A stretch of 64,000 nt of DNA from Burkholderia sp. Bp8992. Its GTDB lineage: Bacteria > Pseudomonadota > Gammaproteobacteria > Burkholderiales > Burkholderiaceae. Of this stretch, positions 45,050 to 47,271 are shown in pieces. The translations under genes and the position numbers were made by a program. The notes beneath the pieces are model-generated. The model saw nothing but the letters and a program-made list of their open reading frames with translations, had not been told where the DNA came from and ran no database searches. Where the stretch lies: the NCBI RefSeq assembly GCF_003853705.1, contig NZ_QTQI01000028.1, forward strand, positions 36,440-100,439. The letters are read 5' to 3'. The number at the start of each line of letters is the position of its first letter. Positions within the stretch are counted from its first letter, which is position 1.

Positions 45050-46447
45050 TTAGCAAGCGTGGCGAGGAAGCTCCGCCAACGGCGGCGAAAACCCTGCCAG
45101 CGTGTCGCCGCGATCGCGCATCCCGTGCGCGCACATCAGCCGGTAGAGCGTCACGCGCGACACGCCGAGCTCGCGCGCGGCATCCGCGAAACGGCCGCGG
45201 TGGCGCAGCAGCGCCTGCTCGATCGCCTGCCGCTCGGCCGCCTCCCGCGCCTCCAGCAGCGACACGGGCGCGAGCGTCGCGAAGTCGTTCAGCTCGAGAT
45301 CGGCCGCGGTGATCATCCGGCCCTCCGACATCACGATCGCACGGCGCACGCGATTGATCAGCTCGCGCACGTTGCCCGGCCACGAATAGCCGTACAGCGA
45401 CGCGACCGCGTCGAGCGAGAAGCCGCGCAGGCGGCGATGCGCGTCGCCCTTGAAACGCTCGAGCATGTGGCGCGCGAGCACCTCGATGTCCTTGCCGCGC
45501 GCGCGCAACGGCGGCTCCTCGATCTTCAGCACGCACAGGCGATGGAACAGGTCCTCGCGGAACCGCCCTTCCCGCAACGCGGCTTCCATGTCCACGTGCG
45601 TCGCGCAGATCACGCGCACGTCGACGGGTACCGACACGTGCGCGCCGAGCCGCTCGATCTTGCCTTCCTGCAGGAAACGCAGCAGGCTTGCCTGGCTTTC
45701 GAGCGGCAGATCGCCGATTTCGTCGAGAAACAACGTGCCGCCGTTGGCGGCCTCGACGCGGCCGATCTTGCGCTGGTTCGCGCCGGTGAACGCGCCGCGC
45801 TCATAGCCGAACAGTTCGGCCTGCAACAGCGTCGACGGAATCGCGCCGCAATTGATCGCGATGAACGGCGCCTGCGCGCGCGACGAACGCTCGTGGATCG
45901 CGACGGCCGTCAGTTCCTTGCCGGTGCCCGACTCGCCGGAGATGAACACCGGCGCATCGGTCGCCGCGACGCGGCGGATCGTCCTGAAGAGCCCGAGCAT
46001 CGCATCGCAGGTGCCGACCATCTCGCCTTCGCTGCGCCCGGCGCCGACGGGCGGCACAACGGGATCGGTCAGCGCGACCATGCCGTGCGCATGGCCGACG
46101 GTCTCGACGATTCGCGACGTTTCGTACGGCATCGTCACGTAGTCGAAGCAATAGTCGCGAATGAGATGGCGCAGCGTGGCATCCTGCAACTGGCCGCGAC
46201 GCGTCGCGGCGATCCAGCCGATGTGCTGGATGCTCAGGCAGGATTCGAGTTCGCGCAGGTCCGAGGGCTTGAAGCCCGGCGAGAAGTCGAGCAGGCCGGC
46301 GCTCGCCACACCGTGCTGCACGACACGCCGTACGTCACGTACGGTCTCCGCGAGATCGACGCGCCAGCCGCATTCGTCGAAATGGCCGCGCAACGCGTCG
46401 TTCGGTTCGCGCGAATAGTAGATCACGTGCCGCTGATCGGCTCCCAT
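45050..46447 (-). CDS. Sigma-54 dependent activator with VpsR-like N-terminal domain
   Basis: Enhancer-binding regulator of 465 residues. Residues 1-125 resemble the receiver-like domain of VpsR, without the usual phosphorylation site arrangement. The AAA+ domain holds Walker A GESGTGKE, GAFTGA (which contacts sigma-54), Walker B GGTLFLDEIGDL and the R-finger region FREDLFHRL. A Fis-type helix-turn-helix ends it (ADAARELGVSRVTLYRLMCAHG). VpsR and its relatives bind cyclic di-GMP; whether this one does is unknown. It is divergent from a small exported protein with a sigma-54-type promoter. Confidence 0.93.
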   Translation of the reverse strand: MGADQRHVIYYSREPNDALRGHFDECGWRVDLAETVRDVRRVVQHGVASAGLLDFSPGFKPSDLRELESCLSIQHIGWIAATRRGQLQDATLRHLIRDYCFDYVTMPYETSRIVETVGHAHGMVALTDPVVPPVGAGRSEGEMVGTCDAMLGLFRTIRRVAATDAPVFISGESGTGKELTAVAIHERSSRAQAPFIAINCGAIPSTLLQAELFGYERGAFTGANQRKIGRVEAANGGTLFLDEIGDLPLESQASLLRFLQEGKIERLGAHVSVPVDVRVICATHVDMEAALREGRFREDLFHRLCVLKIEEPPLRARGKDIEVLARHMLERFKGDAHRRLRGFSLDAVASLYGYSWPGNVRELINRVRRAIVMSEGRMITAADLELNDFATLAPVSLLEAREAAERQAIEQALLRHRGRFADAARELGVSRVTLYRLMCAHGMRDRGDTLAGFSPPLAELPRHAC

Positions 46448-46810
46448 ATCCTCACCCCGTTCATCAACCGTCTAACGATTGCCGTGCACGTCAGGTCTCG
46501 TGCGAAAAGGATCGAATCGGGTCAGCCAGAGGTGGCTCGATTCGCCATGCCGATGCGCGGCGACGACAAAGCCTCGCATGATGGCGCTTATCTCGCGTCC
46601 AGTTATGTTTTGGTCAAGACAGCTTGGTTATAGGCACCGAATACGACAAACCCGTTTCAGCGCCGATGCGATCCGGCCGAATCGCTCAGGAGGTCGATGC
46701 AAGTCAATCATCTGCACATAGCGCAGCGAAGCGTTCGTTCATCAACACACGACCCGATTTTCATCCTTGAAGCGTGTCGATTGAATCCGCAGTATTCCCG
46801 AGCCCCCTCG

Positions 46811-46834
46811 TTTCAGGCCTGAAACATTTTCAGG
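46811..46834 (+). promoter_or_regulatory. Clustered TTTCAGG half-sites, likely activator-binding site
   Basis: Two overlapping palindromes: TTTCAGGCCTGAAA (46811-46824, perfect 14 bp) and CCTGAAA-CAT-TTTCAGG (46818-46834, perfect 7-bp arms). It lies 67-90 bp upstream of the -24 box, a normal position for an enhancer site of a sigma-54 activator. Confidence 0.55.
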
Positions 46835-46899
46835 CTGTTTCGGCCACAATTCGCAACGCCTGAGCGCGAATCGCAGCGGCGACAACGGTCACGACACGA

Positions 46900-46915
46900 T
46901 GGCATGTATTTCGCT
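46900..46915 (+). promoter_or_regulatory. Sigma-54 promoter, GG-N10-GC
   Basis: TGGCATG-TATT-TCGCT against the consensus TGGCACG-N4-TTGCW: GG and GC are at exact spacing, and two of the other conserved bases differ. Transcription would begin near 46926, giving a leader of about 19 nt before the ATG at 46945, which has GGAGA upstream at 46932-46936. Confidence 0.65.
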
Positions 46916-46944
46916 GAATACGCAGACGATCGGAGACAGCCATC

Positions 46945-47271
46945 ATGCACAACCGCCTTTCACTTTCTGTCGTGCCGATGGCGCTTGCGCTCTCGGCCGC
47001 CGGCCCGCCTGCGCCGGCCCGCGCGGATGAAATCGCGATACCGGATCGCGCCACACTGCTGGCCGAAAATGCGCCGGGCCTGCAGCACGGCAACGGCTTC
47101 GGCATCGTGACCGTGTCGGCACCGCAACCGCTGCCGACCGGCAAGGCGACCGTCACGCTGTGGGACGAGATCCCGCCATCGCCCCAATTGCCGATGCCGC
47201 TTCCGGTACCGCAACCCGGCGACGCGCAGCACGCGATGCAAGGCAGCGCGCCGGGCAATACGCGTCAGTGA
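46945..47271 (+). CDS. Small exported protein, proline-rich
   Basis: A 108-residue protein with no family I recognise. A signal peptide covers residues 1-28 (cleavage after ARA, mature start DEIAIPDRATLL). The mature part has a possible beta-strand region (NGFGIVTVSAPQPLPTGKATVTLWDE) and a Pro-rich tail (IPPSPQLPMPLPVPQPG). No Cys remains, so it is not a lipoprotein. GGAGA lies nine bases ahead of the ATG. Its position opposite the sigma-54 activator, with a matching promoter, suggests it is a direct target. Confidence 0.8.
   Translation: MHNRLSLSVVPMALALSAAGPPAPARADEIAIPDRATLLAENAPGLQHGNGFGIVTVSAPQPLPTGKATVTLWDEIPPSPQLPMPLPVPQPGDAQHAMQGSAPGNTRQ

What the first reader, a model, noticed from the sequence alone, without database searches (positions are those of the whole stretch)
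45050..47271. Sigma-54 activator of VpsR type with a dedicated exported-protein target
A VpsR-like enhancer-binding protein is divergent from a 108-residue exported protein of no known family. The latter has a GG-N10-GC promoter (46900-46915), leader of normal length, and a cluster of TTTCAGG/CCTGAAA half-sites 67-90 bp upstream. This forms a compact regulator-target module. VpsR-like regulators act in biofilm control and can bind cyclic di-GMP, so the small protein may be a surface or matrix factor.
Basis: partly seen in the sequence, partly recalled or inferred. Interest (0 to 1): 0.75.

Follow-up and report, generated by a model that had tools for sequence, protein, structure and literature searches.

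The report
Leftover amyloid-operon gene with its switch
In this Burkholderia genome a biofilm-type gene switch and the single small exported protein it appears to control look like what remains of an operon for amyloid fibres, and the same first gene and switch are found without the fibre genes in several related lineages.

Summary
A VpsR-domain, GAFTGA-bearing sigma-54 activator (45050-46447, -; "EBP1") is divergent from a 108-residue exported protein (46945-47271, +; "X"). Between them lie one exact palindrome, GTTTCA-N4-TGAAAC (46810-46825), and 90 bp on a full -24/-12 box (46900-46915). In 27 aligned Burkholderia loci without fap at this place, all 22 core bases are invariant.
In related species the same promoter drives a seven-gene operon, X-fapABCDEF: the functional-amyloid (Fap) system (FapF matches solved FapF, E 5e-83). 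The window keeps only the activator and X. On an activator tree presence of fap changes at least five times, most simply by repeated loss.
X keeps LWDE in 43 of 43 loci. Beside FapD it carries a motif like a C39-peptidase leader (19 of 20 loci); FapE has a similar one in 26 of 26 proteins. It is absent from X in 32 of 32 fap-less loci. FapD's substrate is an open question; this proposes a site.
Not shown: c-di-GMP control, binding of EBP1 itself, X's function. A decaying relic is not excluded. New variant of a known kind.

The parts
45050..46447 (-). EBP1: VpsR-domain sigma-54 enhancer-binding protein, 465 aa
   Evidence: Pfam PF20161 2.1e-21, PF00158 2.5e-68, PF02954 1e-10
46094..46441 (-). 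VpsR domain (residues 3-118)
45779..45796 (-). GAFTGA loop, residues 218-223 (contact with sigma-54)
   Evidence: role is established knowledge, stated also for BerB in PMC5552954
45140..45247 (-). Fis-type HTH (residues 401-436), with SRVTLYRLM
   Evidence: that this stretch is the recognition helix is inferred
46810..46825 (.). Upstream activator palindrome GTTTCAGGCCTGAAAC
   Evidence: only match in the window; 12 of 12 specified bases in 37 of 37 X-bearing named loci; specified bases invariant in 27 aligned loci
46828..46834 (+).
   Evidence: 46826-46836: 4 of 11 columns invariant
46900..46915 (+). -24/-12 promoter TGGCATGTATTTCGCT, 90 bp from the start of the palindrome
   Evidence: 16 of 16 consensus positions in 37 of 37 X-bearing named loci, spacing 90-91 bp
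46926..46926 (+). Predicted transcription start
   Evidence: inferred from box geometry only
46932..46935 (+). Ribosome-binding site GGAG
46945..47271 (+). X: 108-aa exported protein, first gene of the fap operon in relatives
46945..47025 (+). Probable signal peptide, residues 1-27 (...PARA|DE), judged by eye
   Evidence: A27 invariant in alignment A1
47152..47169 (+). Invariant VTLWDE motif (residues 70-75)
   Evidence: invariant in 23 of 23 sequences of A1; LWDE in 43 of 43 loci
47272..47442 (.). Gap between X and folA; in G010 and G011 (B. stagnalis) fapABCDEF and a second VpsR-type activator lie here
44037..45008 (-). thyA, left border of the locus
47443..48003 (+). folA (dihydrofolate reductase), right border
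   Evidence: PF00186 3.4e-59

Best explanation
The locus is what remains of a functional-amyloid (fap) locus. EBP1, a VpsR-domain activator, most likely binds the palindrome at 46810-46825, loops to RNA polymerase-RpoN on the box at 46900-46915 and, probably when cyclic di-GMP is high, turns on X. In fap-bearing relatives the same promoter makes X-FapABCDEF. There X is exported by Sec and, like FapE, probably cleaved by the periplasmic C39 peptidase FapD after a leader-like motif, (L/I/V)-x4-L-x3-(R/H)G(R/G), which frees a disordered C-terminal part with the VTLWDE motif. Where fapA-F is absent, X keeps signal peptide, VTLWDE and promoter but lacks the FapD motif, and most likely still works as an exported matrix or envelope accessory protein. 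Shown from sequence: domains, promoter anatomy and conservation, operon context, repeated change of fap presence, motif pattern. Inferred: direction of change (loss), binding by EBP1 itself, cyclic di-GMP control, cleavage by FapD, a kept function of X.
For: Homology and order: X stands first, before A-B-C-D-E-F, in Burkholderia, Trinickia, Paraburkholderia kururiensis and unnamed Burkholderiaceae loci, and in further genera. FapF matches solved FapF (5o65, E 5e-83) and FapC solved FapC (9nqd, 1.5e-10); FapD is Peptidase_C39 1.5e-20; NCBIfam hits neighbours as FapA 5e-9, FapE 2e-10, FapF 2e-103, FapC 5e-14, all below the curated cut-offs. Promoter: palindrome 12/12 and box 16/16 at 90-91 bp in 37 of 37 X-bearing named loci; of the 18 other loci tested only L179 has both at this spacing. 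20 of 20 further regions have both (palindrome 10-12/12, box 15-16/16, 90-91 bp; 4 are re-fetches of named genomes). 22 of 22 core columns invariant. Whole genomes: 143 palindromes in 61 Burkholderia genomes (sum checked) against 2 for the reversed control. Motif in X: 11 of 11 fap loci, 0 of 32 loci without fap, under a strict and two looser expressions (5 duplicates dropped); 8 of 9 further non-duplicate FapD loci. FapE: 26 of 26 proteins in 25 loci; shuffled FapE N-termini match in 5.9%. Constraint on X in 27 loci: dN/dS 0.54, 0.28 in the VTLWDE block, about as in fap-bearing Burkholderia (0.56). Precedent: P. fluorescens BrfA, described as a c-di-GMP-sensing activator of fapA, and RpoN (passages of PMC9207406, PMC13101488); the protein at the brfA position in L229 also has a VpsR domain (4.4e-8).
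Against: No experiment. The motif correlation has few independent events: 4 concordant, 0 discordant, 1 tied pair, sign-test p 0.125. One fap locus (L326) has RGT and one (L324) HGR, so under the strict RG(R/G/K) form the further loci give 7 of 9; L336 keeps the motif although no FapD was found there. The motif expressions were shaped after seeing the sequences; the one used for FapE also matches 8.8% of ORFs of that size, 4 of 32 FapF and 1 of 34 FapD ORFs. PMC5557850 (passages) says Fap proteins lack canonical C39 sequences and also considers FapF as FapD's target. X evolves fast (dN/dS about 0.5 against 0.075 for the regulator). 3-6 VpsR-domain proteins occur in 11 of 13 Burkholderia genomes searched and 1 in the other two, some with a like HTH. 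EBP1 is not beside every such promoter: none beside the fap copy L076, none found in L337. BrfA does not group with EBP1. The AlphaFold2 model of X is disordered (mean pLDDT 60).
Confidence: 0.7

Rival explanations
1. Decaying relic: fapABCDEF was deleted and EBP1, promoter and X linger without function.
For: X is the only fap-operon gene found in the loci without fap, evolves fast (dN/dS 0.54) and lacks the FapD-like motif. L179 has a FapC-like gene right behind the same promoter without X, so the locus erodes in more than one way. L337 holds only a 34-codon LWDE fragment, with no activator found, behind an intact palindrome and box; L336 has a partial operon.
Against: 22 of 22 core promoter columns invariant where only 39% of the intergenic columns are; the X reading frame is open and LWDE kept in 32 of 32 loci without fap; dN/dS no higher than in fap-bearing relatives; X and promoter are present on both sides of several changes of fap presence.
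Confidence: 0.22
2. Another VpsR-type paralogue, not the neighbouring EBP1, is the main activator at this palindrome.
For: 3-6 VpsR-domain proteins in 11 of 13 genomes; some share SR(V/A)TLYRLM in the HTH; the same palindrome and box precede the paralogue EBPy in L085; the fap copy L076 has no EBP1 beside it.
Against: EBP1 adjoins the site in several genera; in 8 genomes the only exact palindrome is this one. BerB differs: SRATLYRWM, and a different conserved sequence, TGTCCGGAAATGAGAC, exactly 92 bp from the berA box in 6 of 6 Burkholderia genomes.
Confidence: 0.25
3. X is not part of the Fap system: an independent gene behind which fap happened to be inserted in some lineages.
For: X lies next to the activator with and without fap; no X was found beside the Pseudomonas-type fap operons examined and no LWDE reading frame under 400 residues there. 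Direction of the changes of fap presence was not tested.
Against: X is first in fap operons of several genera; LWDE proteins also lie in the fap loci L137 and L138, outside this family; X and FapE share the leader-like motif, in X nearly only next to FapD.
Confidence: 0.12
4. The transcript matters as RNA (small RNA or leader) rather than as protein.
For: Strong promoter conservation and a fast-evolving protein.
Against: No Rfam match above chance (one hit, E 0.36); dN/dS 0.28 and invariant VTLWDE in the C-terminal block.
Confidence: 0.05

Closest known systems
Fap functional amyloid system (fapABCDEF)
   Same: Relatives carry homologues of fapA-F in the same order behind the same promoter
   Different: A seventh, first gene X not in the six-gene operon as described in the papers read; the window's locus keeps X alone
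BrfA-RpoN control of fapA in Pseudomonas fluorescens PF07 (PMC9207406 and PMC13101488, passages read; Guo 2024, Microbiol Res, seen only as a citation there)
   Same: Sigma-54 activator next to fap, with a VpsR domain in the counterpart held here, and a -24/-12 promoter before the first gene
   Different: EBP1 is divergent and upstream, brfA downstream and reverse; the two do not group on the tree; here fap itself is gone
BerB-RpoN control of berA in B. cenocepacia (PMC5552954, abstract, passages, Results part 1 of 2 and section 3.6 read)
   Same: VpsR-domain sigma-54 activator (PF20161 1.3e-13 in the G001 counterpart), similar distance from conserved upstream sequence to box (92 bp)
   Different: Other locus, other HTH, other upstream sequence, regulatory target instead of an exported protein
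VpsR of Vibrio cholerae
   Same: VpsR domain; solved VpsR 7v2b is among the matches, E 5.5e-69
   Different: VpsR acts without RpoN (PMC5552954 passage); EBP1 has GAFTGA and a sigma-54-type target

Membership tests
VpsR-type sigma-54 activators | N-terminal VpsR domain | tested here: met
   PF20161 E 2.1e-21, above the curated cut-off
VpsR-type sigma-54 activators | Central AAA+ domain with GAFTGA and a Fis-type HTH | tested here: met
VpsR-type sigma-54 activators | Binds cyclic di-GMP | not tested
   No assay and no residue comparison done
VpsR-type sigma-54 activators | RpoN-dependent target with an upstream activator site | tested here: inconclusive
   Sequence fits and is conserved; no transcription data
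BerB or BrfA orthologue | Groups with BerB or BrfA on a tree | tested here: inconclusive
   BrfA lies outside the Burkholderiaceae group; BerB falls in the same supported group as EBP1 (98/100) but on a long branch and in another locus
Fap system, locus in relatives | fapA-F homologues in order behind one promoter | tested here: met
   FapB was assigned by order and size only
Fap system, window locus | Fibre subunit FapC, peptidase FapD, pore FapF present | tested here: not met
   Only X is found in the window; elsewhere in this species' genome not testable, because its assembly is not held
FapA | Homology of X to FapA | tested here: not met
   FapA is the second gene (NCBIfam FapA 5.4e-9 on L170:8593-9072); X of the same locus matches no NCBIfam model

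The most novel reading that the evidence does not exclude
X is a seventh Fap component and, with FapE, a substrate of the periplasmic C39 peptidase FapD through a leader-like motif, (L/I/V)-x4-L-x3-(R/H)G(R/G) in X. After repeated loss of the fibre genes, the activator-promoter-X unit was kept as a stand-alone exported-protein system in the Burkholderia cepacia complex and other Burkholderiaceae.
Probability: 0.45. Interest if true: 0.75.

Novelty: new variant of a known kind. Interest (0 to 1): 0.62.

Why it matters
The papers read call FapD's substrate undetermined and note that FapE seems N-terminally processed (PMC6173800 section 8 read; PMC5557850 passages read). A motif found in FapE in 26 of 26 proteins examined and in X nearly only near FapD gives that question a concrete site to test. 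Dueholm 2013 (PMC3792158, passages read) states that the Burkholderia cepacia complex has no fap genes, while a passage of PMC6173800 lists B. cepacia among Fap species. Here complex members keep the operon's first gene, its promoter and its activator, and the record titled B. cepacia LK29 (G013) has FapF and FapD of a second fap type. The palindrome plus sigma-54 box also points to a wider set of matrix genes under VpsR-type activators in Burkholderia.

Tried and rejected
X as FapA: rejected, FapA is the second gene. The conserved GG-N10-GC block near 46579-46600 as a second sigma-54 promoter: rejected, it scores 14 of 16 in the loci where it was listed and is split by an insertion of about 28 bases in L025 and L028. 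RNA element in the intergenic region: only a chance-level Rfam hit. BerB as the regulator: set aside by locus, HTH and upstream sequence. The glycosyltransferase promoter as a constant second target: the exact box was found in only 4 of 18 genomes. Structure of X: disordered, no fold search made. Literature on the locus in B. cenocepacia: nothing useful in the listing. Prior report of X as a Fap gene: none seen in the listings of searches of an open-licence library; most subscription papers are not held.

Limits of my own counts: L179 was labelled fap-less in the tree table but has a FapC-like gene; one search repeats the count without that label (6 changes, at least 5 forced). The B, C and E profiles cross-hit low-complexity ORFs, so these letters were read by order and size. 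The FapE count took ORFs adjacent to FapD within a size limit and left out 4 duplicate loci; L137 gave two; the 340-aa ORF of L143 lay outside the limit and also has the motif. Five duplicates were dropped before the X count. Many Bcc rows are one clade and not independent. In one search weak matches were not all checked. Confidence in the best explanation was lowered from 0.72 to 0.70 on checking, because of L337 and L076.

Full report
What was checked. The regulator has a VpsR domain, a sigma-54 AAA+ domain with GAFTGA and a Fis-type HTH. The small protein matches no Pfam or NCBIfam family at E<=1. In the 64 kb window the palindrome GTTTCA-N4-TGAAAC occurs once, 0.06 matches being expected with one mismatch allowed. 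The -24/-12 box alone would not be remarkable: shuffles give 3.6 matches with one mismatch.

What makes the promoter real is conservation. In 27 Burkholderia loci without fap at this place, window included, all 22 core bases of palindrome and box are invariant, against 192 of 497 intergenic columns (p 4e-10, a guide only). Of 55 named loci tested, 38 have both the palindrome (12/12) and the box (16/16) at 90-91 bp: all 37 with X, and L179. Twenty regions from further Burkholderiaceae, 4 of them re-fetches, all have both, with palindromes of 10-12/12 and boxes of 15-16/16. L017 (G002) has 11 of 12 palindrome bases.

What the small protein is. The nearest named regulators are in Burkholderia cepacia complex species. 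A single-sequence search found X in 34 of 61 relatives, all 34 within the same genus, of which 37 genomes were searched. In B. stagnalis, B. guangdongensis, several Burkholderia sp., Trinickia and Paraburkholderia kururiensis six more genes follow X, and a second VpsR-type activator follows them where looked at. They are fap: FapF matches the solved FapF at 5e-83 and FapC the solved FapC at 1.5e-10, FapD is a C39 peptidase, and NCBIfam models for FapA, FapC, FapE and FapF hit their counterparts, below curated cut-offs. X is an extra first gene; FapA is the second. A profile of X finds 134 of 299 Burkholderiaceae genomes in 8 of 25 genera at E<=1e-3, not all checked. LWDE proteins also lie in the fap loci L137 and L138, outside this family. 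Of the 37 genomes of the genus, 28 have no FapF match at E<=1e-5 and 9 have one; of those 9, five at this type of operon and six of a second type, two having both.

Loss and retention. On a tree of the neighbouring activator, presence of fap needs 6 changes for 35 rows, at least 5 of them forced by well-supported branches (pairs; one search had mislabelled L179). Losses are the simpler reading, but direction was not tested. X of loci without fap keeps LWDE in 32 of 32. Its dN/dS is 0.54 overall, 0.28 in the VTLWDE block, 0.56 in fap-bearing Burkholderia and 0.075 for the regulator. Against a kept function: L337 has palindrome and box but only a 34-codon LWDE fragment and no activator found.

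A candidate FapD site. X in fap loci carries a motif such as LDEDTLSRQRGR or LDDQVLSRQRGG: 11 of 11 and 8 of 9 further non-duplicate loci with FapD (L324 has HGR, L326 has RGT and is the miss; 7 of 9 under the strict form). Loci without fap: 0 of 32 under three forms of the expression and 0 of 6 (one of these the 34-codon fragment); the partial operon L336, without a FapD hit, keeps it. FapE has a looser form, such as LKDQELAQLRGK or VDDDVLAHQTGK, in 26 of 26 proteins from 25 loci; shuffled FapE N-termini match in 5.9% and unselected ORFs of that size in 8.8%. The shape resembles the double-glycine leaders that C39 peptidases cut (leader consensus recalled; C39 and GG stated in PMC6173800 section 8 and PMC5557850 passages). 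PMC5557850 passages report that FapD is periplasmic, needs its cysteine, that FapE alone shows complete N-terminal processing, that FapF may also be a target, and that Fap proteins lack canonical C39 sequences. Independent pairs: 4 concordant, 0 discordant, 1 tied, p 0.125, so the pattern is suggestive, not proven.

Regulation. BrfA-RpoN control of fapA in P. fluorescens is the closest published case seen, and BerB-RpoN control of berA the closest in Burkholderia. The berA promoter has a different conserved sequence 92 bp before its box in 6 of 6 genomes. Elsewhere in Burkholderia the palindrome also precedes other genes: of the 17 sites in six genomes, 16 have a GG-N10-GC box 89-102 bp on, by my reading; L087 fails. 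Two second-type fap operons outside those six genomes (L238, L239) also have palindrome and box, at 101-102 bp, about one helical turn more. In 8 genomes the only exact palindrome is the one before X. EBP1 is not beside every such promoter (L076, L337).

Verdict. Function of X, cleavage by FapD and cyclic di-GMP control remain to be tested.

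Noticed in passing
L238, L239, L090/L237 (G010, G024, G026): A second, divergent type of fap operon (FapF about 31-33% identical) with its own palindrome and a GG-N10-GC box about 101-102 bp on; FapF and FapD of this type also in G013 (record B. cepacia LK29), G016 and G020.
   Followed up: partly
L241:2491-6413 (G001); also L187, L189, L190: A VpsR-type activator of the EBP2 clade sits beside a 194-aa protein and, in L241 and L189, a 549-615-aa exported-looking Ser/Asn-rich protein; the two L241 proteins have no Pfam match at E<=0.1.
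   Followed up: partly
L082:3935-6348, L083, L084, L086: Palindrome plus sigma-54 box before a family-2 glycosyltransferase with an MshEN domain (scanned in L082), a possible c-di-GMP-tuned polysaccharide synthase.
   Followed up: partly
L088, L089: Palindrome plus box (90-91 bp) near a small exported protein that looks like a spore-coat-U-type fimbrial subunit (by eye).
   Followed up: no
L179 (Burkholderia sp. Ac-20379): The same promoter stands directly before a FapC-like gene; X is absent and A, D, E, F were not found in the stretch.
   Followed up: partly
L320, L338 (genus g161): A second X-like gene by profile lies convergent at the far end of the fap operon, beyond fapF; LWDE was seen in the L320 one only.
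   Followed up: no
L076 (G026 C1): A complete X-fapABCDEF operon with palindrome and box but no EBP1 beside it; an unrelated 280-aa ORF lies upstream.
   Followed up: no
window 46510-46546: Conserved inverted repeat CGAATC...GATTCG in the leader of the regulator; no Rfam match.
   Followed up: no
window 41334-43949 (+): 871-aa exported-looking proline-rich protein with a DUF6600 domain beside thyA; a similar protein lies there in several relatives read.
   Followed up: no
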